From NCBI GenBank assembly GCA_027922465.2, contig BQMF02000270.1:124001-188000 (forward strand): a stretch of 64,000 nt of DNA, written 5' to 3'. The notes under the pieces were generated by a model, which was not told where the DNA came from, made no database searches, and saw only the letters and a list, made by a program, of their open reading frames with translations. Position numbers and translations under genes: made by a program. Of this stretch, positions 8,301 to 44,479 are shown piece after piece; position 1 is the stretch's first letter; every line of letters begins with the position of its first letter. The DNA comes from Turritopsis dohrnii (lineage: Eukaryota; Cnidaria; Hydrozoa; Anthoathecata; Oceaniidae).

Positions 8301-8450
8301 CCTTTAATTCAGATTATGGTGACCCAAAAGTGTTCAAAATACAATATGGCTAGGTAGGTCAGGATAAACATACCTTGTGTAGAACTTCAAAATTGATTGA
8401 AATTCTGATGACGTAACATCAAACATAGCATTTTGTTCAGCCCGAAGAAA

Positions 8451-8482
8451 AAAATTTTGTTTAATTACTTAAACAAAATTTT
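8451..8482. repeat. Perfect 14-bp-arm hairpin
   Basis: AAAATTTTGTTTAA and TTAAACAAAATTTT are exact reverse complements separated by four bases. No gene is adjacent; it may be a small element end or chance in AT-rich DNA. Confidence 0.5.
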
Positions 8483-9260
8483 ATGTATTTTTTTGAGTTT
8501 CAGTTTTGAATTCTTCACCTCACGTTTCTTTATTTTTGTCTGAAAAACATCTTAAATTTTCTTCTGTCTTTCGACCAATTACCTTTCGTCTTAACATGCA
8601 GTCTTTCTGATTCATTACTTCAACTAATTTACTCCAATCATTGTTTAGAGAGTCGGGATAGTTGGTTATGAACTCTCGCGTTGTTTTTTTATCAAAGGTT
8701 TACCGGGGATTTCGTAAAACGGTAATATTAGGGTGTGTTAAGTGGTTGCGTTATGTTTCAAAACCCCAGCATCAAACCTTCAATAAATTTGTTTGAATGA
8801 AGAGCGGGAAAAGCAACGGCGGATGACACCATGCGCATGCGTACATTATGCTTCATTCATTTTAGGAAATTTATAGAAATAGCTGATTCTGCAGTTGTTC
8901 TATACTTTCTGTTTACAACCTTTTGAATTTTGCGCCCCTTGATTAGATATGGTAATAAAACATTTGTCTTGATCTGGCTTACTTGCACAAATTTATAAAA
9001 TGCTGCTTAAACATCAACGACAAACAAGCATCAAACTTGGCAAGAACGTTTCTTGCAGACATTATTTCTAACATGAAGGTAGAAAATATTGGTTTCCTTT
9101 GTTTCCATTCAAATCATCTGTGATGCGCTGAAACAGGTATCTGTATTCAAATGTTTATTTTAAATTTACCCGCGTTTTAATTAGCTAAAATAACAATCGA
9201 AAATTTTGCATTACGTTATGTTATGACATCGTGCGCACAGGCTGTAGTTTTCATTTTAAA

Positions 9261-11905: not shown

Positions 11906-12874
11906 AAAATAATAAGCTTTTTATACTTTTGAAATACTTCTAAAAGTTATTTTAGCCGTTTTATATTTAAAACTTCCCAATTCAATTATTTTTAAAATTT
12001 CTTTAAAAAGTCAGTAAAATATGCACACCAAACACGTGAATCGTTCTCGAACCGTCTGGTTTATGTTTTGAGGAAATTGTAGAACTAGAAGAAGCTTTGA
12101 AGAAGAATTTTAAGACTTTATCTACTATTGCAATCGAAATATAATCATAAGAACATTCCTTATGGAGGAAATATTGATGTTTAGCTGACTCTGGGAAAAA
12201 TTCTTGAAAAAGAAGGTGAAGGCTTGATAGTAAACGACGAAACTTTGCTGTGAAAAAAACTTTCAATATCGCAGCAGAAAAGTATTATAGTATCAAAACA
12301 TTACTGGTGAATACGTCTTATCAATAAATGCATGAAACATGTTCATTTCATTTAATAAATATTACACCGAAAGTTGAAGATATTGACAAAAACAAACAAA
12401 TGAAATTGTCATAATAGCAGCACAAGTCACTAATAAATGAATTGACCCAAACATATACATACTGAAAGTATAAACATGTGCAAGATATTGGTGAACGTTA
12501 TGTCTTGTAAAACTGTTTTTCTGGCTCCGAAACGTCATAGTGAATTGAGAAGCGGTAATGAATTAAAGAAGGGAGTAATTTGGGGAATTCCAGACTGTAT
12601 CAAATTATTCATCACTGTACAATGCTCGGTCAAGTTATCACTTGTGTGGAACTGATTAGTTTTAAATTCACATTTAAAAGATTTAAAGATGACATTGTTC
12701 AAAATAATCCTGCAAACTGCTCAATGGAGGCACAATGATTTAGTTTGGATATATATATGTCAGAGGAAAACAAACTTTGAATGATGATTAGAATCCAACC
12801 AATTATATACATACAATGAGATCACTAAAGCCTTGTGAAAATTTGGAGTGTAGTTCTAGGACACAATACCTTAA

Positions 12875-13275
12875 GGGGATTTTTTTTTGCAAGGATTAAG
12901 TTTTGCAACTTTTGCGAATTTTGGGCAATTTCGCAAAAATAAATCCACACAAAACATCAAGACATGAACGATTCGCGAAAATAAATTCACGCAAAATTTC
13001 ATGATTTTATTTGCTCATTTTTTGGCTCTGCGTACCTTTCATATATTATCTATTTCCTTGTACTTATCAAGCACCCATTGATTTTGCAATGTGGAAGGTG
13101 ATTTTTGCTGCTACTTCTAAGCTATATTATAAAGTACACACATTGCACTTTGTGCCCATTCGCAAATATAAATCCAAACATTTTCCTTGAGAAGCTCTGA
13201 CTCGAAAAAATTAATCCACGCAAAACGCTCTCAAGCCTTCGCTCACAAAAATTAGTCCACGCAAAAAATCTCCCC
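12875..13275. mobile_element. TTAA-flanked MITE (401 bp), copy 1
   Basis: Terminal inverted repeats GGGGATTTTTTTTGC and GCAAAAAATCTCCCC are flanked by TTAA on both sides (12871-12874, 13276-13279). The interior repeats a CGCAAAA/AATAAATCCACGC theme. TTAA target duplication is typical of the piggyBac and Kolobok superfamilies; which of the two mobilised it is unknown. Confidence 0.75.
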
Positions 13276-13393
13276 TTAAGGTATATCATGTTCGAAAAGA
13301 ACATTTTCACACAGATCCTAACAAAGTTTTATTGTGTCATTTGTCTTTTCGTGCACATTGGTGTTAGACTCCATAGAAGTGGTAATATGCAGA

Positions 13394-13558
13394 CAATGGT
13401 GGATCTAGAGTGTAGTCGCAACTTGTAGAGAAGCGCATTAACATAAGTTGTGAATTCAGTTCATATTATCAATGGGATTATTTGAACCTTTTTCTTTTAT
13501 GTTTGAATTGCTAACACTCTCCTACACAAGTTGCGGCTTACCACTGGATCCACCACTG
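13394..13558. mobile_element. hAT-like MITE, copy 1
   Basis: The ends are CAATGGTGGATCTAG and the reverse complement of CAGTGGTGGATCCAG, followed inward by GTCGCAACTTGT / ACAAGTTGCGGC. CAGTGGTGGATC-type termini are typical of hAT elements. An allelic or paralogous copy lies at 28255-28419. Confidence 0.5.
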
Positions 13559-13689
13559 GCAGGTTTAGTAGAAATAGATTTTCATATTGTATGTTATGTT
13601 GATCTAAGTTTTGTATATAATTTTTATCTTCTTGTAATGCTGTTAAATGTCATGGATTAAAATCTTTGAAATGCCCAAGTTTCTCCTGC

Positions 13690-13960
13690 TCCTATTAATG
13701 CAAGTTATGAACAATTTCATGTAATGTTTACTTAAATATATTACCATTCACATTTCTGGCAAAATTTGGAAGGTGTGCGCAAAGAACAATTGGAAGGTCC
13801 TGATATTAAAGTTGGCAGTTACTTACAGATTTTTCCCTGATTTTCAAATGATTTGGGTTCACTTCTATCGAATATCATTTTATTCTTCATGTGAACCATA
13901 TATAAGTCATATTTTGGGAATTGTGATAGACCTGTTCTCACGTAAGCAACAAGAACAGAA
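13690..13960 (+). repeat. Single-unit relative of the 128-bp satellite element
   Basis: The TTCTCCTGCTCC...AAGTTATGAACAATTTCATG module, followed by a unit containing AACAATTGGAAGGTCCTGAT, is the reverse complement (diverged) of the satellite monomer and flank at 57830-60510. The same module occurs at 20560-20860 and 28545-28830. Confidence 0.55.
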
Positions 13961-14474
13961 TGGATAGTCATTCAGATATCTTGAAAATTAGCCTAAAGCT
14001 ATTTCCTCTAGGCCTGATGCGGAAATTGTTCAAGCCCTGAGGCTTCTAGTTATAATTAGGTTTGTTTTTTTTTTATTTGTAAAAGGATTTCATATCAATA
14101 AAGCTACAATTGACGTATCTGTATGTTTTTATACCTCACAATAGCGGAATATCTTTGTCATAAAAGAAGATATGATTAAGTTATACGTAAGAACATCTAC
14201 TGATCCTAAAATCCCATCTGAAACGAAAATGCTTATTAGAGATCAAGGATTATGAATCATAAATCATTTGCTACTACGAAACTCGGAAGTTTTAAAGGCA
14301 TTTCTACCAATCAGTTATGTTGCTAAAATTCTGCTGTACCTTTATTTACTTCCATCTGATTCTAGATTCTTTGAAGGTCCATCGGAAAAAAGAATATAAA
14401 ACAGGTTTAAAATAATTAATTAATAGAATAATTCGTAGAAACCGGAAGAAAAAACCACTCGAATGAAACTAAGA

Positions 14475-14483
14475 ATATAAAAG
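14475..14483 (+). promoter_or_regulatory. TATA box of peptide gene 1
   Basis: ATATAAAAG lies 64-72 bp upstream of the ATG at 14547, leaving a short 5' leader. Peptide gene 2 has the same arrangement (TATAAAAA at 19025, ATG at 19091). Confidence 0.6.
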
Positions 14484-14546: not shown

Positions 14547-16116
14547 ATGAAAACTGTCGTGTTATTGGTGTTGTTTTCAGCTGTCCTGTGCATCACTGCA
14601 GGTATCTTTCATCTGCATCTTTATTCTTAAGATGATCTGTTGTACGGAACCATAAGACATTAAAGTGTTTTTTAGAGGAAAGCAACGACATTGAAAATGT
14701 TTTGCAAGTATTATTGGAAAGGGAACAGAGCAATGAAGAAAACACTGAAAATTTTGATGATGACTTCGACCTTGAAGGTGAGCAACTCGACGAATATGGT
14801 TTATTTTTGGTTCTTTGTTGAAGTTCAAAATATGTCCTTCCCTGTACATAAAAACATCACTGATTTACAATTTATACTGATCCTAACAAAAGTTATTCAG
14901 TTAAAATTGAAATGATTACTTTTAACTAACTATAGTTATTTAATTATTTAAAACAAATGTAGAAGGAGAAACGTTTACAACAGTCTAAAAGTTACAATTT
15001 CATAAGATTGGAAAAGAATAAGTGAGATGGAATTTTGAGGTTAAGTAGTCGAATCACAGGAACACCAACACAATAAAAGAAGTGTGGTGGCCTAACTAAG
15101 CTGTTTTATGGATTTGCTTTACCAGTAAGATGAGAGATATCCGCAGATGTTCACAAATAACAACTTCTTGTATAAAGCTTGTTGTCATGTTAAAATCATT
15201 CTGCCGTAGACTTTACTGTTTATATATCTGCTTGCTCCATTCATTCTAATGTACCTATATTATAGGGCAAAGTGATTACGGAAAGTATGAAAATTCCGAA
15301 GATGATGAACTAGAACTTGAAGGTTAGTAACTTTAAAGATAATAATGAACTATTATATGTAGCTAGAGCTGAGGGCTGCACTATGCTGATGTCAGTAATA
15401 ATAGAACAATTGAGAAATGATCTGGGAATGAACAGCTGTTTATTATTAACATAGCGCTGAAACAAAGTAAAAAAATGATTGGCTCTCTCTTTAACTAATC
15501 ACAAGAAAACTGCTGACACAGTTTTTTCTCGACGTATGATCATTATCATTATCTTTTAATGCAATATCATACGCTATTGCTTCTGACCTTTTGATGAAAT
15601 CTCTTTTATTATTGATGGATTCAAGGAACCATTAACATGTTCATTTTCTGACTAACTCAAACGGTTTTCCTAAATATATTCAACGTCCAATGATTTTTCA
15701 GTCGTTTAACTAATCTAACTAATTTTCCATCTTATGTTCGTGACATTGTTAGAATTTATAATTATCTATTTATCACACACCTCTACATAAGATCAAAATA
15801 GCCAAATATGTTGTGCAACATTGTATATTCTACAGTGTGAATCACTTGAAATATTTTTGCAGATGACAGTTGGAATGAAGAAGAGGTAGGCAGTGAAAAC
15901 GATCCATTTATATTTAAAAGACGAAGACGTCGCAACAGACGTGGTTGGTTTCGAAGAATCCGTATTCGACTTCCACAATGGGTGTACCGCATACGAGTAC
16001 GCTGTACAACTGCATGTGTCGCATACCATTTTTGCAAGTTTAACAAGAAGAAGACTAACTGTACCCATCCATCAAAATGCAACTGCTATAAATTCGCATG
16101 GCAAAGAAAAGGATGA
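14547..16116 (+). CDS. Secreted acidic-cationic six-Cys peptide precursor (gene 1)
   Basis: Four exons: 14547-14601, 14676-14777, 15266-15322 and 15863-16116, all with GT-AG boundaries and all phase 1, giving 155 residues. Residues 1-18 (MKTVVLLVLFSAVLCITA) are a signal peptide encoded by exon 1. Exons 2 and 3 encode an acidic Glu/Asp-rich propiece without cysteines. Exon 4 opens acidic, reaches ENDPF, then switches to an Arg-rich basic tail starting at a KRRRRR run (likely processing site) with Trp/aromatic residues. It ends with six cysteines spaced CX3CX5CX8CX5CXC. This layout resembles antimicrobial precursors such as Hydra arminins (acid pro-region neutralising a basic C-terminus), although arminins lack this cysteine module. 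Antimicrobial, venom-like or signalling roles are all possible. A TATA box and AATAAA complete the gene; the paralogue is at 19091-29468. Confidence 0.8.
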
Positions 16117-16218: not shown

Positions 16219-16224
16219 AATAAA
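16219..16224 (+). terminator. Polyadenylation signal of peptide gene 1
   Basis: AATAAA lies 103 bp past the stop codon of the gene at 14547-16116. Confidence 0.6.
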
Positions 16225-19024: not shown

Positions 19025-19032
19025 GTATAAAA
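19025..19032 (+). promoter_or_regulatory. TATA box of peptide gene 2
   Basis: TATAAAAA lies 59-66 bp upstream of the ATG at 19091, matching the spacing in peptide gene 1. Confidence 0.6.
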
Positions 19033-19090: not shown

Positions 19091-20447
19091 ATGAAGATCA
19101 TCCTCGGCTTGGTAATTCTCTCCGCTCTCACTATCTTAAAAGCAGGTACCGTATTTCCTCTATTAACCGAGCGGCCGCTTATTAAATGTTTTTGACATTT
19201 AGGGAGTGGTGTGGACGGGGTGGCTTAAACGAGGGGGCGGCTATTAAAGTGTTTTGAAAAAATCCATGCAACAAAATAATGAAAGATGCAAACTCGCGTT
19301 TCGACCGTTCATTAGAGGTGTCCACTAATTAGAAAGCTTGTTAATTTAGAGTCAATTTTCGTTTTCTAATCGAAATTCGTGCGTTTTTTACTTTTGGTGG
19401 CGAGGAGGAGGCCATTGTGGAATATTAAAGACTTCAGAAAGACGTAAAGTCAAGAGTAACATTAAAAAAAGCACGCCGTCAAAATCAGAAAGATGAATTC
19501 TAAGGGAAAAGATGCTACTTTTGGACATATCCTTAAAAAACATCTGTAAGGCTTCGTGAATGTTTCTCTCTGAGGTTATTGGGAACTATGGAGGAGGATA
19601 TTGGCTTGAAATTCCCGAGAAAAATCTATTTAAGGGACCTACAATAGCAAGCATAAAACTGGTTCATAAAAAAAATCGAGAAAGCTGAGAGAAAGAATTT
19701 TGTAATAGTGTTGAAAAATATTTAAAATAATATAATTATATAATAATACAAATTAATGTATTTTTTTCCTCAAATCAATAAAAATTTAAAAATTTTCGAA
19801 ATTTCCTAACAATGTCCTCTAATCAAAAAGAGAAAATCTCAAAAAAGATTATTGCATTTGGTGATAGAAATTCTGTTCGCCAATTAGAATGCCACTAATT
19901 GCTTGTCCACTATTTAGAGCGTTTTCCGTGTTAGGGGCTTTAAAGAGAAAATACAGCATAAGATTGATGATTGGAACAATAGCCACTAAAGAGAGATTTT
20001 AAAAAATTTTGTTTGTTTAAACACTGGATCGTATCAAAAAAATTACTGTTTACTCTGCTATTGTCAATTGTAACATTTTAAGGTCACATATGTTTATCTC
20101 ACTTAGTTTTCTTTCTAACACGGTTGCTTCGCTATTTTACCTGGAGATATCGAGGTAAAGGTTGCGTCAAAGACACTTTACCGCAGAGCGTTTTAAGTTG
20201 TCGATTTTGTTCAGTTAACCGGAACACTCTTAGATTACTTCAGTTGTGTTCTTGTGAAGTCCCATTGTTTTATATACGTATTAACTTGCAATTAATGTTT
20301 GTGATTTAAACAAATCACGTGTTTATTGATTCACAGAACGACAAGAAAATGTTGAAAAAGCTCTTCGATCTATTTCGGAAAAACAGTTGGTTGATGACGT
20401 AAATTTGGAGTATTGTGACTTCGATGAAGATGGTGTCGATAATGAAG
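19091..20447 (+). CDS. Secreted peptide precursor gene 2, exons 1-2
   Basis: Exon 1 (19091-19145, 55 nt, the same length as in gene 1) encodes a signal peptide starting MKIILGLVILSALTILKA and ends at a GTACCG donor in phase 1. Exon 2 (20337-20447, 111 nt) begins after TTCACAG and encodes a propiece that is acidic towards its end (DFDEDGVDNE). It contains one cysteine and ends at GTGTGT, again phase 1. The next phase-1 acceptor that yields a plausible continuation is at 29293, giving a tail homologous in layout to gene 1. The intervening intron is then about 8.8 kb and packed with mobile elements. If that intron is no longer spliced, gene 2 would be dead despite intact exons. Confidence 0.65.
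19150..19260 (+). repeat. Interspersed repeat with CCGTATTTCCTCTA head
   Basis: ACCGTATTTCCTCTATTAA followed by GGCCGC/GGGGCGGC motifs begins a few bases after the exon 1 donor of gene 2. The same head (TACTGTATTTCCTCTAATAA plus GCG-rich sequence) is present at about 33415-33500. Class unknown. Confidence 0.4.
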
Positions 20448-20524
20448 GTGTGTTACTTAAATTATTACATCAATGGTGTTTATTGTTACATCTTTACACA
20501 CAACTTTGTAGCTGTAGGAGCAAA

Positions 20525-20860
20525 AGCTAATTGACTTTGTCCTAAAGTCAATTAGCTCCGTGGTGGAGTAAAGTATTCAAAATATCCGTGGTTTCTCCTA
20601 CTACTACTAGTATTTCTACTCCAAGTTATGATCGATTTCATGCAACGTTTACAAGACACTGATGACAAATTTGCAACTTTGGCCAAAGTTGAACTTTTAG
20701 CTCACCAAATTTCCAAAAAAGTGTACTAAGAACAACTGGAAGGTGCTGATTTTGAACCTGAGAATTATTTCGTCAGGTTTGACTAAAACTGGACAATTCG
20801 GGCCAAACTTGGAAAATTTTCGAAAGTTCTCCAGTCTTCATAAAAATTCTCATAAAGCAC
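20525..20860 (+). mobile_element. Single-unit relative of the satellite element with terminal hairpin
   Basis: Starts with a perfect hairpin (AGCTAATTGACTTT / AAAGTCAATTAGCT, 20525-20557, 5-base loop), then GTGGTGGAGTAAAG, CTACTACTACTAG and one monomer whose reverse complement is the 128-bp satellite unit of 57830-60370. The same CCTAAAGTC and CCACCACGG end is found at 60480-60512 in reverse. This looks like the original, unamplified element. Confidence 0.6.
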
Positions 20861-20865
20861 AAGTG

Positions 20866-21281
20866 AAAGGCTTTTTATACTTTTGAAATTTTTTTAGAAG
20901 TTATTTTAGCCGTTTTATATTTAAAACTTCCCAATTCAATTATCTTTAAAATTTCTTTAAAAAGTCAGTAAAATATGCACACCGAACACGTGAAACGTTC
21001 TCGAACCGATTTGTTTTATGTTTTGAGGAAGTTGTAGATGTAGTAGAAGCTTTGAAGAAGCTTTGAAGAAGAATTTTAAGACTTTATCTACTATTGCAAT
21101 CGAAATATAATCATGAGAACATTACTTATGGAGGAAATATTGATGTTTATTCTTGAAAAAGAAGGTGAAGGTTTGATAGTAAACGAAACTTTGCTGTGAA
21201 AAAAAACTTTCAATGTCACAGCAGAAATGTAGTATCAACATTACTGGTGAATACATCTTATCAATAAATGCATGAAACATG
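20866..21281 (+). repeat. Compound repeat block X, copy 2, 5' part
   Basis: Matches 11910-12345. The match stops abruptly after CATGAAACATGTTCAT and resumes without loss at 27218, so the block was opened by an insertion. Confidence 0.75.
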
Positions 21282-22320
21282 TTCATTATATATTTTCCCA
21301 TAGGGCGAAATATATGTTAAAACCGGCAGTTTCCTTCTCCTTCATCTTCTCCGTTCACTTTTATAGCCGCGGTTCAGAATGCAATTTTCGCCTAGCCGCC
21401 AAAGTAGATAAGAATAGAGGCTAGCCTACAGTCAAGTAGTACGCCATGTTTTTTCAGTCAGTGCTGATGGGCTGTAGAAGATTTTTGATTTTTCCACTAG
21501 CTTTTAAAATGATTCAAGGGAATTCAACTTTAAATGATGGAAATAAATCATTTTAGCTCAGTATTGTCTTAAAAGGTTTCGTAAAAACTTTTGAAGAAAC
21601 GTGTAAAAACAGAAAAATGTTGTTTTGTTTTTGTTGAGATGATGCTGTGATTTTGTGGTGCAAAGGCGAAAATTCATTATCAATACAGGCAGAAGACTTA
21701 TTTTCATTTTACGTCCTGATATAATGTGAACTGAAAGCACATATGATTTACACGTACAGTGCTATAAAAGGAAGTCTTTTTTATGTGGAGAACAACCAGT
21801 TCAACCAGTGTTAATTCAAAAAGTACATTACAAAAACAGCAAGTAAAAATGTGATGTCGTATATGCAATAAGAACATCAGAAAACCAATTACGTATAATA
21901 ACAGAAAAGATTGAGAGACACAAATGTCTGCTCGGAAAATGTGCTTCCCTGGATATTCATTTAATCTGACAACAGAAACATAAATTTACTATGGATTTAC
22001 TATGGATTACACGAAACGTCTACTTTCAGCTTTTTAGTGATTTGGTTATAGATATGTAGTCTATTTTCACTACAGAAATCTGTTTTTTGTTTTCATTTAG
22101 GATTTACAATGGTCATTTTTATCAAATAATAAATAATGGGTGTGCACATATTTTTTTGAACAGAGATGTTTATTCTGAACACTTGAATTTGATTTTATAA
22201 ATTGTCACTTTAAGCCCATCTCTTTTGAAAATAACTCTTTTGTCAAAATTTTTTGATTGCTTTTTGATAGTTATTTGCTTATATATATATTGAAGATATT
22301 CTTCAGGGCGTAAAGCTTTA

Positions 22321-22464
22321 GCAAAAAGAGAATAACAAGAAGTTTCATTTTGATTTATAATTTAATTCAAATTTCGTCCTGCATGATGATGTTCTGTGGA
22401 TGTAGGACAAAATATTGAATTAAATTATGAATCAAAATGAAACTTCTTGTTATTCTCTTTTTGC
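22321..22464. repeat. Hairpin with 63-64-bp near-identical arms
   Basis: 22321-22384 and the reverse complement of 22402-22464 both read GCAAAAAGAGAATAACAAGA and onward, with only about six differences and a 17-base loop. The transcript would fold into a pre-miRNA-sized stem. It is most simply a foldback MITE. Confidence 0.7.
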
Positions 22465-23255
22465 TTATAGAGGAGTTTCTTAGTGACATAATGTTTATAA
22501 ACACCAGTGTTCTTTGCTCGATAATTACGGTATATTGCAACATAAAATATCATTAATCAAGTCATTTTCCTGTGAGTATGCGCACGCAGCCTCACAGGAA
22601 ATAAAAGTCTCTTTATACACTTCAAAATGTTGTCCCTTTATTTGGTTCTCTGGAGTCCCCTTAAAGACAATCGACATTAGAAATTTTCAATACACATTAG
22701 CACTTCCTATCTATTTTTGTACATTGTATTTGATTTTTAGTATGTACAAGGTATAAAAGTGTAATTAACATTGGAAACTCGTCTATATATCTGCCTCATA
22801 GTATTTTTAATACTTATACTGTAGTACTAAAATTAAGTTTGACAATTTTCTTTTCTTCTTTTGTAAATTTGATTGTATAATTTTGAAAGAAAGTTTTATC
22901 TGAGTTACAAAAAGCAAGTGCAAGTGTCTTCCGTTACATTACATTGTTTTGTTGTGATTTTATGGTATAAAGGATGTCAAGCTTCTGCAACAATAAAGAT
23001 CATGTTTATTATGCTAAAATCGCCTTACACATTGGTGCGGCTGTTGATATTTAGTTGTTTAAAATTTGTAAAAGAAACCTCATTTGACCATGAACATCTT
23101 CATTTCTTAATAAATTCAAAATAAGTTTTTTTGTGGTATCAAATTCGATTCTACCCTGTTTAGTAAGGACAACATTTTTATCTGAGAGTATGACATTGAT
23201 GGTAGTTATACCATTCATTGTAGTTATTTGATGATGTATATTTTTCTTATGGTAT

Positions 23256-24436
23256 TTAAGAGCCAATTTCTGTAAGAGTGGGGCAGTTTTAGCAACTTCT
23301 GATAGTAAAAAAAATTTTTTTCTTTCATTTTGGGACATGTTGTACAAAACCATGTGAGAGGAAAAAATCCAAAATTTGAATGCTCAAAAATCCATAATGG
23401 CCGAGTTATGCCCATTTGAAGAATTTTGAAAATTAGTAACCGGACCAAAATTGGCCTCTGTTGCAATTTTGCTGGCTTATATCTGAATGCGCCCTTATAG
23501 TCACACAACTTTCTTTTCAGATTCTGTTAATATGTCCTGAAGGCTATTGAAATTGATCAAAAAATTTGTGTGACCATAATGGCGGCACAAGCTACAGTCC
23601 CCCAAAATCACAACAAAATGAACGCAAACAAACTTTGAACAACTTTGAAGCCTGGTATCTACAGGAAAAATGGTTTAGTAGCCTGGGTACTATGGTGCTT
23701 TTCGTAGCAGTAAGAAGCAAAAAAAGGCAAAAGTGGTGATTGTTTGCCTCGCTTTCCCGCATTGCGCCCTTAGTTGCATGTGAAAACCTTTTTTGTTTCT
23801 GATACTAAACTAATTGAACTATCAGTAACAAAAGAAAAAGTCATGTGACCTCCTATAGATTTTTCAAAAATTAGCTCAGAAGTTTGAAAAAAAGTCATAC
23901 GAAATCCTAAGACTTTCAACTACTGAGATAGACTTGCGCTCTTATAAGTTGTATTACTGACAAATGGTTGAGGAAATTTGGTCAGGTATTTCTTTGTATT
24001 AAGCTTATTTGACAGTTATTGTTATTGAAAATTAAGGATTTCTTCATAAATGCTGATTTAGAGGTCTTTTATATCTTAAAATATTAACAAAATTGTATCG
24101 GACATGATCTATCTAGGTATATACATCATCAAGTGAAATGTTGTAAAAGTAATAAAGTAATAACAAGCAAGGAAGTTGAAATAATAAACTTCCAGTGATA
24201 AGTTATAAACAAATGAAGTTAGCTGTGTTTCAGCTTGTCAATATCGCATTGATGAAGGCCAAAGGCCCTGCTATTAACTGGAGCTGGTGGTGTAACTGAA
24301 CAGACAACGTCTTCCATAGCAAACCAGCTAATGTCATCTTTATCCGGCCAGATGAATCGATTTTCCTCACTTCCAATCCTCTTCATACACTTTACTTCAA
24401 CTTCATCATCTTCCATTTTCAATATTTTGCCAGGAT
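23256..24436. repeat. Left arm of a 1.2-kb inverted repeat
   Basis: Reverse-complementary to 25702-26955 (for example AAGAGCCAATTTCTGTAAGA at the outer edge and AATATTTTGCCAGGATACCA at the inner edge). Relative to the right arm it lacks about 90 bases near 23672. It contains the last exon of the transposon-like gene at 24219-24485. Confidence 0.8.
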
Positions 24437-25690
24437 ACCATTGTTTATTAAACTTTACGATCGCCCATTTTCCAATTTCCAACACAGGACCTAATTGAAA
24501 GAATTTTTTTTAAAGCCGTACATTTATAGGATTCAGTGTCATGTTTAGTCACTAATAAACTTGCAATTAACATTTTAATGTCTTTGTTGTTGAAAATAGA
24601 GAATGAAGCTTAATAATATCAAGAGGTGATGCCAGACATAGCTTTTTCTATTAAATTCTTAGCCCTCTTAACATAAATCAGTCCAAAGTTTTGAAATTAC
24701 TTACTGGACACTTTTTCCTGTAACTCAGACAAGGATGATGTGCGTACTTGTTTGCTCCATCGAGAAAATAAGGAACGAATTTGCTTTACTGTACAATATT
24801 CATTGGTAGGAAAGCATTTTCGCATGGCCATATGAACATCTTCTGGACTGGCTTTCTGTCCGGTCTTTTCACCATCTTCAAATGCTTTAAGAAGGAAAGC
24901 TTTTTGTCGGGGATTGAATCGGAAAGTTGACCTGACTGGTAGTGCCCATCCTTTACCGACCTGTGATGGATTCATAGAGGCTGTAGGTTTTGAGGAAGAA
25001 GGACCTGGTGTCGATGTGATATGTGAATGTGTTGATGCCGCCATCAGCATTCTGTTTGCAAAAGACTTTTTTATACAATCAAAAGTAGTGATTCCTTTTG
25101 GAATTGAATGAACACCTTGGATCATATGCACCTCTAAATCTTGAAAGGAGCTGAAAGATGTGGTACATTCTTCATAATTACAAAATATTACGTTACAAAG
25201 TTGACGATCACTACGCTTTTTTTTATTTTCACTTATCACAACATTGGAAGCCCCAGTACATTGTGTGAATGGCTTCACAATTTGTATGCTAGATTTTAAC
25301 GACCATTTAGTAGTGTAATTCTGGTTAACACCGGATCCAATTCCATAATAACGCCAAAGTTTGATTGCATTTGCGGTAAACTCCATGGAATGGTAAGATG
25401 AAATATTTGGAATTGCATCTGCATTGACTGAACATTTACTTTTGTCGAAGGAAACAACGGACACCTTTGTGTTTTTCATTTTAGACATAGTTAATGCTTT
25501 GTGAATATCTTCAGCTGAGACAATATCATTTCCTTCATCCACAAAACAGCGTAACACGTTCCGGTAACAGCAGAATCTCGATCACACTGATCCTTTCCTT
25601 TTTGGGGTTCATTGTAGTCCAGTCTTCGTAGATTGATTCCATTCTCTTTGCAAATGTTGTACAAGGATTCCGCATAAAAGTTTCCATGGT
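24219..25690 (-). pseudogene. Transposon-like gene with C2H2 finger and RNase-H-like segment, truncated
   Basis: Minus-strand gene in the loop of the inverted repeat. From the 5' side: a segment with SSYHGNFYAESLYN and LDYNEPQKGKDQCDRDS (25690-25560), then after a frameshift an open frame 25557-24697. That frame contains AEDIHKALTMSKMKNTKVSV and PNISSYHSMEF, a C2H2 finger (CNYEECTTSFSSFQDLEVH), a Ser/Pro linker and FNPRQKAFLLKAFEDGE. After an intron comes a final exon 24485-24219 resembling a Tudor/chromo-like module (KFNKQWYPGKILKMEDDEVE...WPDKDD). I recall this domain order from multicopy proteins in cnidarian genomes; the EPQ.GKD.CDR block looks like part of an RNase-H/DDE-type transposase. 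The N-terminus is missing where the right arm begins, so this copy is dead. Confidence 0.55.
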
Positions 25691-25701
25691 ATGAAGATGG
25701 T

Positions 25702-26955
25702 ATCCTGGCGAAATATTGAAAATGGAAGATGATGAAGTTGAAGTAAAGTGTATGAAGAGGATTGGAAGTGAGGAAAATCGATTCATCTGGCCGGATAAAG
25801 ATGACATTAGCTGATTTGCTATGGAAGACGTTGTCTGTTCAGTTACACCACCAGCTCCAGTTAATAGCAGGGCCTTTGGCCTTCATCAATGCGATATTGA
25901 CAAGCTGAAACACAGCTAACTTCATTTGTTTATAACTTATCACTGGAAGTTTATTATTTCAACTTCCTTGCTTGTTATTACTTTATTACTTTTACAACAT
26001 TTCACTTGATGATGTATATACCTAGATAGATCATGTCCGATACAATTTTGTTAATATTTTAAGATATAAAAGACCTCTAAATCAGCATTTATGAAGAAAT
26101 CCTTAATTTTCAATAACAATAACTGTCAAATAAGCTTAATACAAAGAAATACCTGACCAAATTTCCTCAACCATTTGTCAGTAATACAACTTATAAGAGC
26201 GCAAGTCTATCTCAGTAGTTGAAAGTCTTAGGATTTCGTATGACTTTTTTTCAAACTTCTGAGCTAATTTTTGAAAAATCTATAGGAGGTCACATGACTT
26301 TTTCTTTTGTTACTGATAGTTCAATTAGTTTAGTATCAGAAACAAAAAAGGTTTTCACATGCAACTAAGGGCGCAATGCGGGAAAGCGAGGCAAACAATC
26401 ACCACTTTTGCCTTTTTTTGCTTCTTACTGCTACGAAAAGCACCATAGTACCCAGGCTACTAATTTTTTTTTACCAAATAAAGTTTTTTCAATAGTAGTA
26501 ACATAGTAGTTTGCATTTTGCATAGTTTTTAGTAATACAAACCATTTTTCCTGTAGATACCAGGCTTCAAAGTTGTTCAAAGTTTGTGTTGCGTTCATTT
26601 TGTTGTGATTTTGGGGGACTGTAGCTTGTGCCGCCATTATGGTCACATAAATTTTTTGATCAATTTCAATAGCGTTCAGGCCATATTAACAGAATCTGAA
26701 AAGAAAGTTGTGTGACTATAAGGGCGCATTCAGATATAAGCCAGCAAAATTGCAACAGAGGCCAATTTTGGTCCGGTTACTAATTTTCAAAATTCTTCAA
26801 ATGGGCATAACTCGGCCATTATGGATTTTTGAGCATTCAAATTTTGGATTATTTCCTCTCTTATGGGTATGTGCAACATATCCCAAAATGAAAGAAAAAG
26901 AAAATTTTTACTATCAGCACCTGCCCCACTCTTACAGAAATTGGCTCTTAATGAT
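25702..26955. repeat. Right arm of a 1.2-kb inverted repeat
   Basis: Reverse complement of 23256-24436. At 25702-25915 it carries a plus-strand copy of the last exon of the gene at 24219-24485. In this copy a TGG codon is TGA (ATTAGCTGATTTGC), so it is not coding. Confidence 0.8.
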
Positions 26956-27022
26956 GTATATTTTTCTTAACAATGTATAATATATAATGATGTATGATTA
27001 AGTTTCGCAACTTTGGGGAAAT

Positions 27023-27187
27023 CAGAGGCGTAGTTGAGGTCAGTCAAAAAAACCTGGAGGAGTTCAACATTACGATATTTCCTTTCAGTCTCAAGTGGCG
27101 ATTAGGTTACTTGCACGCTTTTCTTTTCTACCCTAAATGACTTAACTCTCCTCCACAAATTTTGACTGACCTCTGGCTACGCCTCTG
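27023..27187. mobile_element. hAT-like MITE (165 bp)
   Basis: Ends in CAGAGGCGTAG and CTACGCCTCTG, with inner matching GAGGTCAGTCAAAA / TTTTGACTGACCTC. CAGAGGCG-type termini are typical of hAT elements. No convincing 8-bp target duplication was seen. Confidence 0.6.
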
Positions 27188-27749
27188 GAAATATATAGTC
27201 GCATTTTTGCGAATCTTGTTTCATTTAATAAATATTACACCGAAAGTTGAAGATATTGCAAAAAAAAGACAAACAAATGAAATTGTCATTGCAGCACAAA
27301 ATCGCTAGTGAATGAATTGACTCAAACATACATACATCTGAAAGTATAAACATGTGCAAGATATTGGTGAATGATATGTCTTATAAAACTGTTTCTCTGG
27401 CTCCGAAACGTCATAGTGAATTGAAAAGCAGTAATAAATTAAAGAAGGGAGTAATTATGGGAATTCCAGACTGTATCAAATTATTCATCACCGTACAAAT
27501 GCTCGGTCAAGTTATCACTTGTGTGGAACTGATTAGTTTTAAGTTCACATTTAAAAGATTTTAAGATGACATCGTTCAAAATAATCCTGCAAACCGTTCA
27601 ATGGAGGCACAATGATTTAGTTTGGATATATGTTAGAAGAAAACAAACTTTGGATGATGATTAGAATCCAACCAATTATATACAAAATGAGATCACTAAA
27701 GCCTTGTGAAAATTTGGAGTGTAATATGTTCTAGGACACAATATGTTAA

Positions 27750-28131
27750 GGGGACTTTTTTTGCGTGGATTAAGTTTTGCAATAAATCCACGCAAAAAGT
27801 CAAGACATGAACGATTCGCGAAAATAAATCCACGCAAAATTTCATGATTTTATTTGCTCATTTTTTGGCTCTGCGTACCTTTCATATATAAAACTATTTC
27901 CTTGTACTTATCAAGCACCTATTGGTTTTCCAATGTGGCTGGCATGGAAATGGTGATTTTTGCTGCTACTTATAAGCTATATTATAAAGTACAACATATT
28001 GCACTTTGTGCCCATTCGCAAATATAAATCCAAACATTTTCCTTGAGAAGCTCTGAATTGAAAATGTTAATCCACGCAAAACGCTCTCAAACCTTGACTC
28101 GCAAAAATTAGTCCACGCAAAAAAAATCCCC
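27750..28131. mobile_element. TTAA-flanked MITE, copy 2
   Basis: The 382-bp counterpart of 12875-13275, flanked by TTAA at 27746-27749 and 28132-28135. It was present before block X duplicated, since both copies share the insertion. Confidence 0.7.
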
Positions 28132-28254
28132 TTAAGGTATATCATGTTCGAAAAGAACATTTTCATACAGATCCTAACAAAGTTTTATTGTGTCATTGTC
28201 TTTTCGGGGACATTGGTGTTATTTATAAACTCCATAGAAGTGGTAATATGCAGA

Positions 28255-28419
28255 CAGTGGTGGATCTGGAGTGTAGTCGCAACTTGTGGAGAACCGCATT
28301 AACATAAGTTGTGTATTCAGTTCATATTATCAATGGGATTATTTGAACCTTTTTCTTTTATGTTTGAATTGCTAACACTCTCCTACACAAGTTGTGACTT
28401 ACCTCTGGATCCGCCACTA
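28255..28419. mobile_element. hAT-like MITE, copy 2
   Basis: Counterpart of 13394-13558, starting CAGTGGTGGATCTGG and ending CTCTGGATCCGCCACTA. Confidence 0.5.
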
Positions 28420-28544
28420 GCGAGTTTAGTAGAAATAGATTTTCGTATTGTATGTTATGTTGATTTAAGTTATGTATAATTTTTATCTTCTTGTAATCAT
28501 GTTAAATGCCATGGATTAAAATCTTTGAAATGCCCAAGTTTCTC

Positions 28545-28830
28545 TTGCTCCTATTAATGAAAGTTATGAACAATTTCATGTAATGTTTACTTAAATATAT
28601 TACCAAATTCATATTTCTGGCAAAATTTGGAAGGTGTGCACAAAGAACAATTGCAAGGTCCTGATATTAAAGTTGGTAGTTACTTGCAGATTTTTCCCTG
28701 ATGTTTCCCTGATTTTCAAATGATTTTGGATCACTTCTATCGAATATCATTTTATTCTTCATGTGAACCATAAGTCATATTTTGGGAATTGTGATAGACC
28801 TGTTCTCGCGTAAGCAACAAGAACAGAATG
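28545..28830 (+). repeat. Single-unit relative of the satellite element, copy in block X
   Basis: Counterpart of 13690-13960 (TTCTCTTGCTCC, AAGTTATGAACAATTTCATG, AACAATTGCAAGGTCCTGAT). Confidence 0.5.
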
Positions 28831-29292
28831 GATAGTCATTCAGATATCTTGAAAATTAGCCTAAAGCTATTTCCTCTAGGCCTGATGCGGAAATTGTTCA
28901 AGCCCTGAGGCTTCTAGTTAAATTACATACCATTTGATCTAACGTCTCCTGAGACAAAAAAAACTAAAAACCCTTAACGATAACGGTGACAATCGCAATT
29001 TTAATGGCTAAATATTTGATTGGATCTATCGGTCCTGATCTCAAATATCGTATAAATATGCAAGTACAATACAAAATAATAAACAGTCACTTAAATCTTC
29101 ATCTCAATCTAATCTACTAGATTCGTTTGTGCTTATGAATTCATTAAGATAAAGGGAAAATGTTTGGCAAAAGACATTAAGAAAGCAGAATCTAATGTTT
29201 TCTCGCAGAACTATTATCAGTTCCATTTCCAAGTACTCTGACATCGAATGAATATGGAAAAATTCTGTATATTTCATTCTTATCTTTCGTAG

Positions 29293-29468
29293 ATGAAATC
29301 GATGAAAAAGAAGAACAATATTTTGAAAATAATGATCCATTGGGTCGCAGACGAAGATGGCGTCTTCCACCATACAAAATTTATCGAAGATTTCGAATAC
29401 CGTGCAACATCAGATGTCTTTTTTGTGGACAACATTGTCGGAAAGTTGGAAGTTGTGTATGCAAGTAA
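29293..29468 (+). CDS. Terminal exon, cationic six-Cys peptide (gene 2 or a third paralogue)
   Basis: A phase-1 acceptor (TTATCTTTCGTAG) opens a 57-residue terminal exon. It has an acidic start (EIDEKEEQYFENNDPLG), then an abrupt Arg-rich basic tract (RRRRWRLPPYKIYRRFR) and six cysteines spaced CX3CX2CX3CX5CXC, stopping at TAA. The acidic stretch ending N-D-P-(L/F) directly before the Arg run, and the shared CX3C...CX5CXC frame, match exon 4 of gene 1 (15863-16116). The two exons are therefore homologous although their sequences have diverged strongly. It is the first suitable acceptor found after exon 2 of gene 2 (20447). In the same frame the sequence is open back to about 29209, but that stretch is hydrophobic and unlike a propiece. 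Confidence 0.65.
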
Positions 29469-31240
29469 ACTGCAGTAAACATGAGAGGAAAATTAATTAA
29501 TATCATGTCTAATATCATGGAGATATGTAATAACGAAATTATAAACTGACTAGTATCCCGGGTAAAAACTTTTTACCGAACTTAACTTCGAAAACATTAG
29601 GTCAAATCCACCATTCCCGTGTACGTACCCCGTGACGAAAAAATAAATCATAGAATCGCAACTCAAAAACATCCCAGGCGGCGTCGCTCGCCACCCATGT
29701 TCAGTATGCGTTGTGTTGCAAAATTTAACTCGTGTAAAAGTTTCTACAGGCATTAATTTTTTAATTCATTTCTTACATTCAGAAGATTAAAAACAGAAAC
29801 AAATAGCAACATGGCTCAGAATAATATATTTATACTCAGAAGAGAAGTAACTTTAATGTAAAAAAAATGGCAATATATAACACAGAACTGTTTACCCAGA
29901 CATACGAAACCAAACGTTACAAAATGTTAATTCAAAACAAATTGATACCTTCCAACTTTTTCTTTTGTTCCAAAGTTACTACTCGACTGCAACCATTAAT
30001 GAATTTTTGAAATGATATGAAGTCTGTTCTTCCCAAAACCATCAACGTCATGATTAAAACGATGAGTTTCATTTCTTCATGCTTTTTTTATTATTACTTA
30101 AAAAATTAATACTTGAATTGTAATACCGAAAACCTAATCATGCTATAACAATATTGAAATAAAAAATAAAACAAAAAGAAAGAAAAAACAAAAAGAAAAT
30201 TCAAGTACGCATTTATCCTAAAGATAACAATTAAAAACAAAATTTGGTCTATAAAGTCAACCGATACTGTGAGTCAATACGGGTTCACTCAACACTGGAG
30301 CTGAACAGAATAAAGACTTTTACCTGGCATACACAACCAAACATCAAATTAATAAAAATAATTGAAACAACAAAATGCCCTACTTTGACCAAAACCATAA
30401 TTGAATACCCAGAATGCCGTAAACAAATATAAACTGAAGAAAAATATACCCCAGCAATGCTTCTATTTTGTAGTACAATCGCAATGAAATACTTAATCCA
30501 TTCTTCTCTTAAATAACCTTCTCAACATACCATGTGTTTCATTTATACATTTATAAATTTCGTTTATAAATAGCTACACTGACCTAAAAGAAAAAGATTT
30601 CAGTAAAGAACAGCTACAATACTTACTACTACTGCAACCATATTTAAGCAAACCAAAACAAAAGGCATAAATGGCTGGCAGAAAGGCATGCAGACAAAGA
30701 ATCAAACATCGTCAATAGATACAATTTGACAGCACAACACATTCCCTACTTCCACAGCCATGAGAAAGGAAAACAGTCATAGCTGTGGGACCATTTTTAA
30801 TTGATCTGTAAATAAATAAATCAAATCAAATCTTCTTTCCTAACTATAAAAATAATAATAGCGCGCGTTACCAAAACAAATTACTCTCGTCTTCATTTTT
30901 CATCCAGCAGCATATAAACTAAACGAAAGAACTCATATAATAAGAATCTATTCAAAGCTATAGTATTTAATCTTTCAAAACTATAAAACCATTCCTTACT
31001 GTGTAAATAAACATCATTTTGTTCTGCATTTCTTCACTACACTTTCTTCTGTATAGCGATATTTGATAACTAAAACGTAAACAAACATTTAAATACATTT
31101 AAATACAAATACATATACCTAACTTGTTCTTTTATTAATCAAAAAGAAAAGTTTTATAATAATACCTTTTGTTCGTTCGATCTTTCTGCAGCTAATTTTT
31201 AAAAACTTCACTGCACTTCTTCTGTATATCTAAATATGAT
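29469..31240. other. AT-rich intergenic DNA, no gene seen
   Basis: Very A-rich on the plus strand, with short frames lacking splice signals or domains. Confidence 0.4.
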
Positions 31241-31929: not shown

Positions 31930-32808
31930 TTAAACTGTTTCCGTGGTGCTATTGGAATGTACTTTTTTCTTGCATCCTATCAATTTCAGCATATGTTTCC
32001 TCATATATGGTGCTCTATAGTAATAAACAACAGGGTTGACAATAGAGTTCACAACACACATCGTCATCCCAATGACGTATGATTTCGCCAATGACTCATA
32101 AGAAAAGTTTTTCGTCACATTCAGAAAATGATGAATACAAATCGGCATGATTGAAAACACGAAACACGTGATCAATATCATGACTGTCATTGTGGCTTTT
32201 CTTTCCATTTTGATATAACTGAACATTCTGCCTCGACGCTTCTTCCCGTGTTTATTTAAAGCCACAAACAACATGATATATGAGCAAATTAATATGATGA
32301 GAATCGACATTGCCATTGTTACTATAAATGCTGAGTACACCTGCTCGGAATCATCAATCTTTCGTAGCAATGGAGTGAGCAAAGGGACAACCCAACACAC
32401 AAAAAGACTCAAATATAATTTTCTGCTGGTCAACTTGTAGCACATTAACTTTCTCAAATGTAATGATCGGTCATAACTTATTAAGCAGATGGTCAAAACT
32501 GATGCACCAATCAGAAACGCCGACAGATATCTTCGTACTAAATCAATACTGCAATTGTTGGTTAAATTTTTATCCAGGAGTTGAATGGCAAATAACAGTG
32601 CAACTGTAACACCAGTCAAAAAATCTGAAGTTGCTAGTGATGCAAGGATCTTGTTTGATTTGGTATGAAGAACTTTATACCAGTAGATAGTAATCAAAAC
32701 GTATGCATTTTCGATTGTTGCGAGAACTGACAATATTGCCATTAATGTACCAAAGACATTTTTCCAGTTTTGAGATGGTAGCATATCTAATGTAGAATTG
32801 CACGACAT
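31930..32808 (-). CDS. Class A GPCR, intronless (receptor 1, 292 aa)
   Basis: Seven-helix receptor in one exon. A short N-terminus has an NST glycosylation site. TM1 carries the conserved Asn (about residue 34, in TIENAY) and TM2 the LATSD motif (Asp 62). At the start of TM3 there is a Cys (86). The TM3 end reads SYDRS (DRS replacing DRY), TM6 reads CFVFSIMP without the usual CWxP, and TM7 has NSIVNPVVYYY (NPxxY). The second extracellular loop is very short and has no Cys, so the usual TM3-loop disulphide cannot form; this is also true of vertebrate melanocortin-type receptors, but orthology is not implied. Acts in the plasma membrane, presumably with G proteins; the ligand is unknown. Its C-terminal half is nearly identical to receptor 3 (49169-50071). 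Confidence 0.9.
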   Translation of the reverse strand: MSCNSTLDMLPSQNWKNVFGTLMAILSVLATIENAYVLITIYWYKVLHTKSNKILASLATSDFLTGVTVALLFAIQLLDKNLTNNCSIDLVRRYLSAFLIGASVLTICLISYDRSLHLRKLMCYKLTSRKLYLSLFVCWVVPLLTPLLRKIDDSEQVYSAFIVTMAMSILIILICSYIMLFVALNKHGKKRRGRMFSYIKMERKATMTVMILITCFVFSIMPICIHHFLNVTKNFSYESLAKSYVIGMTMCVVNSIVNPVVYYYRAPYMRKHMLKLIGCKKKVHSNSTTETV

Positions 32809-34270
32809 TTTTGAGAAATTTGCTCAATCTGACACTAATATTCGATGATGCTTCATCGACACGGTTTGTAGTAAAGATTAGAAACCAATTTCTCGCTTTA
32901 CTTTTTCGTCAGCAACAACACTAAAGAACTTCGAGTTAACTACTTGTGCCAAAGCTGTATAGTTTCAAAAACATCATTTGAAAGATCTTACATCTTTATT
33001 GCATATTGTAAATAAAAACCATGCAACCATTTACAACAAAATGGTGAATCTTTTAAAGGTTTCCTTTTAAGCAGATGTACTAACCAAAAGCCATTAGAAA
33101 TAAAAACCTATTTGTCTATGTTTTTTACATAAAAATGTCTGAATGTACGATAAGATGGAGAAATGTCCAACACATCTAAATCAGAATAAACTGATATAAA
33201 TAAGCAAAGATGTTAAAATGTTAAAGATATAAAATAATGTTTAAGTATGAAATCCGTTACATTAGAAAATGCAGTACTTACAGACAGTGAACTGCAACGA
33301 ATGGAACTAACGTTTGCAGTAAAAAAGAAAACAAGAAAGGTTTTCAGAAGATTTCTCATACCAGCTGGGCTTTTTCCCCATCCAATAACAGCTTCCCACA
33401 TCTTAAGCAATAACTACTGTATTTCCTCTAATAAGCGTCGCGGCTTTCTACCATGTTTTGGATCGGTGAAGTAGCGTTCATTAGAGGGCGCCATTTATTA
33501 CAAAATGAAGAATGACATAAGAGCAGACTTTAAACAACAATGTGTTTATAAAAACTTTACGAAAGATTGTCGGAAAATGCTTTAAACAAAAAGGTATATT
33601 CACATTACACAAAATGTTAAAGATATTGTACTAATATGATACTTCATACACAAAAACACTTAAAAGATAATGAGCTGTTGTGAAAAGTACTGAAAGATGC
33701 AGTCAAAAAAGCAGTTAAAATTTTCAGAAAATTGCTTCGAAGGAAAAGTTTTATTCACACTGCAACAAGATTTTTTAATGAGATGATGTAGCTGATGATA
33801 TATAAATGATATATAAATAAGCGTTGCGAATGGAGAGTGGCATGCTAAGCTGGGGTGAAAAACGAAAGAAACACAAAGACAATTGAAGATTTCTTGCTTA
33901 CGCAGATAAGGCGTAAAGTTTGAACACTTCAAGATGTGTCACAATTTCACAACTAGTTTCGGGCTACAGCGTCAAAAGACAATTTAATGATTTTAAACAA
34001 GTGAAAACTTCAAGAACATTTGAAAGACAATTCGAAAGCAACGCTTGTAGATGTTCTTTGTGCAGATTTTTTTAACCTGCTAGCATATATTTTCGGTCTC
34101 GTTTCCATCATGCCTGAGAGAGATAGACAAATATCAGTTCTTCCACGAACATAACAACAAAACATTTCCAGGAAATACTTAAACGATAAGAATAACTTCG
34201 TGCAGGGATAATAAAGTAATTATAATTGCTAAAACACAGGTGTTTATATATTATTATATATTATCTATAT
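32809..34270. other. Intergenic DNA, no gene seen
   Basis: Apart from a short repeat near 33415-33500 (shared head with 19150), no supported feature was found. Confidence 0.4.
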
Positions 34271-36299: not shown

Positions 36300-36524
36300 C
36301 AAGAACATCGGATTTTGACGTCAAAACGACGATAAAAAAAACAAAAATGACGTTGAACGGATGTTGTACAACGACCAAAAGACCGAAAACAACGTTGCAT
36401 TGAAGTTGTAGCATGGTCAAGTTGTCGATAAAAGGTAATGAACAAATGAAAAGTCACCAGCGGGAATCGAACCAGACCCCTCGCATGAATTCTGAGAGTG
36501 ATAATCACCATACTACGGTTCTGA
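36300..36524 (-). mobile_element. tRNA-derived SINE interrupting a GPCR pseudogene
   Basis: The minus-strand head at about 36524-36452 has CCGTAGTATGGTGATTATCA and a B box GGTTCGATTCCC, related to the head at 10957-11032. The body continues to about 36300. GPCR homology in the pseudogene at 36513-36998 stops exactly where this head starts. Confidence 0.6.
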
Positions 36525-44472: not shown

Positions 44473-44479
44473 TTTTTCA

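What the first reader, a model, noticed from the sequence alone, without database searches (positions are those of the whole stretch)
14547..16116. Complete gene for a possibly new class of acidic-to-cationic six-cysteine secreted peptide
Four short phase-1 exons encode a signal peptide, a cysteine-free acidic propiece, an Arg-run processing site, a Trp/Arg-rich basic stretch and a CX3CX5CX8CX5CXC module. The charge-neutralised layout recalls Hydra arminins, but the added cysteine module does not match arminin, macin, ShK or defensin spacing that I know. A TATA box and AATAAA make it a well-formed gene.
Basis: partly seen in the sequence, partly recalled or inferred. Interest (0 to 1): 0.85.

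Follow-up and report, generated by a model that had tools for sequence, protein, structure and literature searches.

The report
Multi-gene family of six-cysteine defence-like peptides

Summary
It is not alone. A diverged paralogue lies in the window (19091-29468). One search of the same genome plus scanned flanks gave 11 more last exons on four contigs; 12 of the 13 have a signal-peptide exon upstream. The Cys module is under purifying selection (19 of 45 pairs computable, all dN/dS<1). The arm before it runs from absent to six RIRLP repeats. Two paralogues lack Cys3 and Cys4 together, suggesting a Cys3-Cys4 bond beside a CX3C/CXC cysteine-stabilised helix. The array reads as a defensin's without the first Cys, consistent with nematode ASABF-6Cys-alpha, so "matches no defensin spacing" is only partly right; strict CS-alpha-beta spacing is not met. 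No significant homologue was found outside this genome. Best reading: a lineage-restricted antimicrobial-type family; function inferred, not shown. The host is most likely an animal; cnidarian was not tested.

The parts
14476..14482 (+). TATA box of gene 1, 71 nt before the ATG
   Evidence: consensus match, function inferred
14547..14601 (+). gene 1 exon 1: signal peptide MKTVVLLVLFSAVLCITA (cut by eye), phase 1
14676..14777 (+). gene 1 exon 2: acidic propiece
   Evidence: aligns with exon 2 of gene 2 (10 of 2000 shuffles as good)
15266..15322 (+). gene 1 exon 3: second acidic block; its 3' end resembles that of exon 2 (20 of 24 bases), perhaps an exon duplication
   Evidence: 37 of 200000 random GT-anchored pairs reach this
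15863..16116 (+). gene 1 last exon: end of propiece, DP boundary, Arg run (RX[KR]R), Arg/hydrophobic arm RIRIRLPQWVYRIRVR, six-Cys module CX3CX5CX8CX5CXC, C-terminal Gly, stop
   Evidence: similar last exons elsewhere in the genome
16219..16224 (+). AATAAA polyadenylation signal of gene 1
19026..19032 (+). TATA box of gene 2, 65 nt before the ATG
19091..19145 (+). gene 2 exon 1: signal peptide MKIILGLVILSALTILKA (cut by eye), phase 1, same length as in gene 1
20337..20447 (+). gene 2 exon 2: acidic propiece (one Cys)
29293..29468 (+). gene 2 last exon: DP boundary, RRRR, RLPPYKIYRRFRIP arm, CX3CX2CX3CX5CXC, stop; separated from exon 2 by an 8.8-kb intron that holds repeats
29642..29647 (+). 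AATAAA downstream of gene 2

Best explanation
Gene 1 is a member of a lineage-restricted, tandem-duplicating family of secreted host-defence (antimicrobial-type) peptides. The precursor enters the secretory pathway; its acidic propiece neutralises the cationic C-terminal part until proteolysis at the acidic/basic boundary (furin-type RX[KR]R where present, otherwise next to the DP pair) frees a peptide of about 57 aa, charge +15. That peptide would have an Arg/hydrophobic arm (possible beta-hairpin in gene 1, RIRLP repeats in others, missing in the shortest members) that binds anionic microbial surfaces, and a compact module held by a cysteine-stabilised helix (CX3C tied to CXC) plus a Cys3-Cys4 bond. 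Shown by computation: gene structure, family, purifying selection on the module, paired absence of two Cys. Inferred: processing, disulfides, fold, antimicrobial action.
For: Intact predicted gene with TATA and polyA signals. 13 last exons in one genome: window 2, C146 4 in tandem, C62 1, C11 5, C202 1; 12 of 13 have a signal-peptide exon upstream on the same strand. In 10 of 10 modelled genes the propiece is -9 to -28 and the rest +7 to +29, net -5 to +2 (the split was set at the charge minimum, so the two signs are partly by construction, the near-zero net is not). TATAWA within 150 nt of the ATG in 10 of 10, at 65-71 nt in 7 of 10 (four of the seven are the C146 copies). Module dN/dS 0.05-0.63 in the 19 of 45 pairs that could be computed (pairs are not independent; gene 2, C146c and C146d were left out of that test). 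RX[KR]R lies at the boundary in gene 1, gene 2, C62, C11a, C11c and as REKR in C11d and C11e. Cys3 and Cys4 are both absent in C11d and C11e while CX3C and CXC stay. The traits are those that PMC10945409 lists for Hydra AMPs: signal peptide, bipartite charge, complex Cys pattern, clustered paralogues (passages; section 4).
Against: No transcript, peptide or activity data. No homologue with known function. The four C146 copies lack RX[KR]R. The C146a/C146b whole coding sequence has dN 0.032, dS 0.024 from 12 differences, with identical modules: no constraint visible in their propiece. The AlphaFold models are unusable (pLDDT 45.2 and 51.5, two-sequence alignments). The two 4-Cys paralogues share other changes and probably one loss event. 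Amphipathicity of the gene 1 arm is borderline against shuffles (95 and 130 of 2000) and not seen in gene 2. A secreted charge-biased Cys peptide could equally serve venom or surface-coat functions. C11b has no signal exon that I could find.
Confidence: 0.66

Rival explanations
1. Divergent true CS-alpha-beta (cis-)defensins: descent from a defensin that lost its first Cys and gained one in the loop after CX3C, keeping the helix-stabilising half and the fold.
For: CX3C ... CX5CXC in both window genes; 8 of 13 last exons (C146 four, C62, C11a-c) carry G-R-C before CX5CXC, as in the published GX1CX4-9CX1C ending; [quoted passage not shown] Cys order consistent with ASABF-6Cys-alpha.
Against: Strict and spacing-only CS-alpha-beta patterns fail in both window genes; a profile of six modules finds nothing in PDB sequences up to E 10; no significant Pfam match; gene 1, gene 2, C202, C11d and C11e have no GXC at Cys4.
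Confidence: 0.3
2. Venom or prey-directed neurotoxin-like peptides rather than antimicrobials.
For: Secreted, Cys-rich, expanded by duplication; six-Cys CS-alpha-beta peptides with insect spacing cannot be split into toxins and antimicrobials by sequence (PMC5116183 section 6).
Against: Strong charge balancing and a +15 product fit the traits listed for Hydra AMPs; the beta-defensin-fold and ICK patterns of the sea-anemone overview (passages) are not met.
Confidence: 0.14
3. Polyanion-binding surface, mucus or egg-coat proteins: the Arg arm binds glycans or nucleic acid, and microbes are not the target.
For: Arm charge is high and arm length changes by whole RIRLP repeats.
Against: The short C11 members have no arm at all yet keep the module under purifying selection.
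Confidence: 0.1
4. Neuropeptide or hormone precursor, processed at basic sites and amidated at the C-terminal Gly.
For: C-terminal Gly in gene 1, C146 (four copies) and C62, 6 of 10 models; basic cleavage sites.
Against: One Cys-rich product per precursor, fast-changing arm; gene 2, C11a, C11c and C202 do not end in Gly.
Confidence: 0.06
5. Chance open frames or a pseudogene.
For: Splicing is predicted only; models outside the window were sought with a phase-1 rule.
Against: 0 of 200 simulated windows hold the pattern (post hoc); family members with dN/dS below 1.
Confidence: 0.02

Closest known systems
HyCWR peptides of Hydra (PMC10945409, section 4 read)
   Same: Secreted, six Cys with non-defensin spacing, strongly cationic C-terminal part, several paralogues at one locus, antimicrobial role proposed but untested; Trp present here too (1-4 after residue 40).
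   Different: The paper reports no conventional cleavage site; here RX[KR]R stands at the boundary at four of six loci (gene 1, gene 2, C62, C11). Its Cys spacing is in a supplement that I could not open, so sequence kinship is untested.
ASABF-6Cys-alpha, six-Cys nematode antibacterial factor (PMC5116183 section 6)
   Same: Array described as C3-C6, C8, C9: no first Cys, extra Cys after CX3C; consistent with the order seen here.
   Different: Nematode peptide; no sequence was compared, exact spacing not checked; I know of no acidic propiece or RIRLP arm in it (recalled).
Invertebrate CS-alpha-beta defensins (PMC6435467, passages)
   Same: CX3C, CX5CXC, mature part on one exon after a phase-1 intron.
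   Different: First Cys absent, extra Cys, acidic propiece and Arg arm here; no sequence match.
Penaeidins of shrimps (PMC9409781, passages)
   Same: Two-part mature peptide: a Pro/Arg arm of variable length and a better conserved six-Cys C-terminal domain.
   Different: No profile match in the PDB set up to E 10; the review names PDB 1UEO for LvPen3 but I did not check that it is in the searched copy; no penaeidin family among the Pfam matches; the precursor described there (signal, Pro-rich, Cys-rich) has no acidic propiece.
Arminins and periculins of Hydra (passages)
   Same: Arminin: negative N-terminal, positive C-terminal part. Periculin: bipartite charge, Cys bridges. Both: clustered paralogues.

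Membership tests
CS-alpha-beta defensin | Cys pattern CX4-15CX2HCX6-9GX1CX4-9CX1C, or its spacing alone | tested here: not met
   both window genes: strict pattern and two spacing-only forms on the mature part, one spacing-only form on the whole precursor; pattern from PMC6435467
CS-alpha-beta defensin | CSH half: CX3C ... CXC | tested here: met
   for the window genes; by inspection also in the other 11 last exons
CS-alpha-beta defensin | mature part on one exon behind a phase-1 intron | tested here: met
   predicted splicing, and models outside the window were sought with a phase-1 rule
CS-alpha-beta defensin | alpha-beta fold | tested here: inconclusive
   pLDDT 45.2 and 51.5; not searched against fold libraries because of low confidence
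CS-alpha-beta defensin | detectable sequence similarity to solved members | tested here: not met
   0 hits up to E 10; presence of particular defensin entries in the PDB copy not checked
ASABF-6Cys-alpha array | six Cys = C3-C6, C8, C9 of the reference array | tested here: inconclusive
   Cys order fits by inspection the description; whether Cys4 here is C6 or C7 of the array is not determined, and no ASABF sequence was compared
beta-defensin / big defensin | last two Cys adjacent | tested here: not met
   feature (beta-defensin fold)
ShK / aurelin type | CX3CX2C ending (recalled) | tested here: not met
ICK | CnCnCCnCnC | tested here: not met
   feature
HyCWR | six Cys, cationic C-terminal part, paralogues at one locus | tested here: met
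HyCWR | Trp-rich | tested here: inconclusive
   1-4 Trp after residue 40 in 10 models; the paper text gives no threshold
HyCWR | its own Cys spacing and sequence | not testable with these tools
   only in a supplement; supplement look-ups are capped at 0
Penaeidin | Pro/Arg arm plus six-Cys domain | tested here: inconclusive
   RIRLP arms in C202 and C146; gene 1 has one RIRLP, C62 none, C11 no arm
Penaeidin | sequence match in Pfam or PDB | tested here: not met
Arminin | acidic N-terminal, cationic C-terminal part | tested here: met
   feature
Arminin | no Cys module in the cationic part (recalled) | tested here: not met

The most novel reading that the evidence does not exclude
An undescribed animal antimicrobial family that builds, outside crustaceans, a penaeidin-like two-part peptide: an arm that evolves by gain and loss of RIRLP units, joined to a cysteine-stabilised-helix module whose third disulfide is re-routed (Cys3-Cys4 instead of the defensin bond to a missing N-terminal Cys). 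Two paralogues have shed exactly that bond.
Probability: 0.4. Interest if true: 0.75.

Novelty: new variant of a known kind. Interest (0 to 1): 0.58.

Why it matters
If right, it adds a peptide family with a modular, repeat-expanding cationic arm and a reduced defensin-like scaffold to the catalogue of animal host-defence peptides. The paired absence of two cysteines gives a testable answer to a question left open in PMC5116183 for ASABF-6Cys-alpha: how six cysteines pair when the missing ones do not form a bond pair. It is also a case of an apparently taxon-restricted effector family with full gene anatomy, near-identical tandem copies and diverged copies in one genome.

Tried and rejected
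Rejected: (a) arminin membership, because of the Cys module; (b) strict defensin, beta-defensin, ShK-type and ICK membership by pattern; (c) weak matches treated as chance: PDB DBS5 at E 0.96, CCCH antiviral protein at E 8.2 and alpha-L-arabinofuranosidase at E 1.2, phage proteins at E 6 to 10, low-complexity Pfam hits of the acidic or Arg-rich parts (best Nucleo_P87, E 0.0014, 18.1 bits against a cut-off of 25), Saf4_Yju2 at E 0.17 for the gene 2 frame, NCBIfam hits (best E 0.13). (d) A profile of signal peptides alone does not recover left-out window genes: without gene 2, gene 2 is not among the 8 best rows shown; without both, neither is, so the signal exon is no proof of kinship by itself. 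(e) The module profile does not find gene 2 up to E 5; its kinship rests on exon order and phase, shuffles (exon 1: 2 of 2000, exon 2: 10 of 2000, last exon: 0 of 2000; Cys module alone: 186 of 2000, not significant) and the shared CX3C/CX5CXC (at least 3 of 5 equal spacings in 1772 of 200000 shuffles; CX3C first and CXC last in both in 50 of 200000). (f) Beta-strand amphipathicity of the gene 1 arm is only borderline (95 and 130 of 2000 shuffles) and not seen in three gene 2 pieces (662, 400, 387 of 2000). (g) An exon 3 for gene 2 was sought; only three overlapping poor candidates. (h) Structure prediction twice, both too poor to search. (i) A GPCR search to name the host gave 4 unnamed hits at 49-53% identity. 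(j) Not in print: fragment searches of the paper library found 0 papers; 'HyCWR' is in one paper; the other searches were judged from their listings; the library lacks most subscription journals.

Full report
What is there. The signal peptide (18 aa as I cut it; no signal-peptide program was run) is followed by a Cys-free propiece of 72 aa with charge -26, then 65 aa with charge +22 and six Cys. The spacing is 3-5-8-5-1. TATAAA lies 71 nt before the ATG and AATAAA at 16219. Exons 2 and 3 end alike (20 of 24 bases; 37 of 200,000 random GT-anchored pairs reach that), so exon 3 may be a copy of the end of exon 2.

A paralogue in the window. A second last exon at 29293-29468 and a signal-peptide exon at 19091-19145 with an acidic exon at 20337-20447 make a 113-aa precursor of the same plan: -16 propiece, RRRR, +13 remainder, six Cys at 3-2-3-5-1. 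Its long intron holds repeats. Kinship is moderate rather than overwhelming: only 2, 10 and 0 of 2000 shuffles match exon 1, exon 2 and the last exon, but the Cys module alone is not significant (186 of 2000), and the family's module profile misses it.

A family in the genome. The one genome search that was answered places the window at C270:124001-188000 of a 435.9-Mb assembly of 891 contigs and finds 11 places at E<=0.001, of which 2 are gene 1 itself and 9 are elsewhere: four tandem copies on C146 about 4.6 kb apart, one on C62, three on C11, one on C202. Scanning 12 further 10-kb flank stretches added two more, both on C11: 13 last exons in all with the window's two. A signal-peptide exon precedes 12 of 13 on the same strand; for C11d and C11e the link is by position only, and C11b has none that I found. 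I modelled 10 genes in full. Outside the window the scan asked for phase-1 exons, so the shared phase there is partly by construction. In all 10, TATAWA lies within 150 nt of the ATG, in 7 at 65-71 nt (gene 1, gene 2, C62 and the four C146 copies), against 47 of 1278 window ATGs with one starting 55-82 nt upstream.

What is constant and what varies. Constant in six aligned modules (gene 1, C146, C62, C11a, C11c, C202): C, C, Y, C, C, P, C-N-C, F. Variable: the stretch before the module, which has six RIRLP units plus RIRL in C202, three RIR[LV]P units in C146, an Arg run with a basic strand in C62, RIRIRLPQWVYRIRVR in gene 1 and only FLFNW or FLFSW in C11. A DP pair stands near the acidic/basic boundary in 8 of 10 models, all but the two C11 genes. 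RX[KR]R marks the boundary in gene 1, gene 2, C62, C11a and C11c, lies inside the arm of C202, and is absent from the four C146 copies. Net charge without the signal is -5 to +2 in all 10. Six of 10 end in Gly, a possible amidation signal (inference).

Selection. In the module, 19 of 45 pairs of ten members give a finite dN/dS, all below 1 (0.05 to 0.63); one pair has no differences and 25 are saturated at synonymous sites. Gene 2, C146c and C146d were not in that set; pairs are not independent, and several of the 19 have dS above 1. C11a and C11c last exons differ at 8 of 165 bases, dN 0.015, dS 0.254. Against this, C146a and C146b whole coding sequences give dN 0.032 and dS 0.024 from 12 differences, with identical modules, so their propiece shows no constraint.

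Disulfides. C11d and C11e keep CX3C and CXC but have no Cys at positions 3 and 4. Lacking two cysteines together is what one expects of a bonded pair; it leaves CX3C and CXC, whose four Cys form the cysteine-stabilised-helix motif in CS-alpha-beta peptides (PMC5116183 section 5). The two copies share surrounding changes, so this is probably one event. The same review says that ASABF-6Cys-alpha has the array C3-C6, C8, C9 and that its pairing is open (section 6). The pairing 1-5, 2-6, 3-4 proposed here is inference.

Function. No activity is shown. The traits match those PMC10945409 lists for Hydra AMPs: signal peptide, bipartite charge, complex Cys pattern, clustered paralogues. The arm plus six-Cys plan recalls penaeidins, whose Pro-rich domain is also the less conserved half and of variable length (PMC9409781, passages). 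The most likely mechanism is storage or transit as a near-neutral precursor, release at the boundary, and binding of the cationic part to microbial surfaces with the module as a stable head.

Relation to known families. Pfam, NCBIfam, PDB sequences, 5.8 billion proteins, IMG/VR and GTDB contigs gave no significant relative. The contig collections are viral and prokaryotic, and how well the protein set covers animals is unknown (it did hold GPCR relatives), so absence says little about animals. Strict CS-alpha-beta spacing is not met, so I do not file it as a defensin, while its CX3C...CXC half, the CX5CXC end and the gene layout are like one. HyCWR of Hydra is the nearest printed description I found; its sequences could not be compared.

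Host. In the window, two intronless rhodopsin-type GPCR frames match 7tm_1 and a third has database relatives with that domain; near the C11 copies lies a DEG/ENaC-type channel (PF00858, E 2e-48). The host is therefore most likely an animal (inference); nothing tested here shows that it is a cnidarian.

Noticed in passing
window 11922-14058 and 20870-21287 + 27219-28925: Repeat unit of about 2.1 kb (90% and 87% identity in two blocks), upstream of gene 1 and inside the gene 2 intron; both copies end in a short hairpin AAGCC-CTGA-GGCTT followed by CTAG, like a Helitron 3' end (inference, recalled feature).
   Followed up: partly
window 21288-27218: About 5.9 kb inserted in the second copy of that repeat; holds an inverted pair 23256-23676 / 26539-26951 (94%) and a 294-aa ORF on the minus strand at 24697-25581.
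   Followed up: partly
window 31930-32823, 36513-37001, 43537-44502, 49169-50122 (minus): Cluster of intronless rhodopsin-type GPCR frames; two of the four were tested and match 7tm_1, a third has relatives with PF00001; 36513-37001 was not tested and looks truncated.
   Followed up: partly
window 40122-41914 (minus): Transposase remains; one ORF matches the TNP-like GTP-binding insertion domain PF21788 (E 8e-19).
   Followed up: no
L012 minus strand 8339-8527 (C11b): Family last exon with an intact module but no signal exon found upstream; perhaps a broken copy. Described only.
   Followed up: partly
L009-L010 (C146:764.6-779 kb): Four tandem copies about 4.6 kb apart; three have identical coding sequences, a very recent expansion or gene conversion, or an assembly artefact.
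   Followed up: no
L025 2817-4100 and 7867-9153: Two similar long open frames beside the C11 cluster; the second matches the amiloride-sensitive sodium channel family PF00858, the first was not tested.
   Followed up: partly
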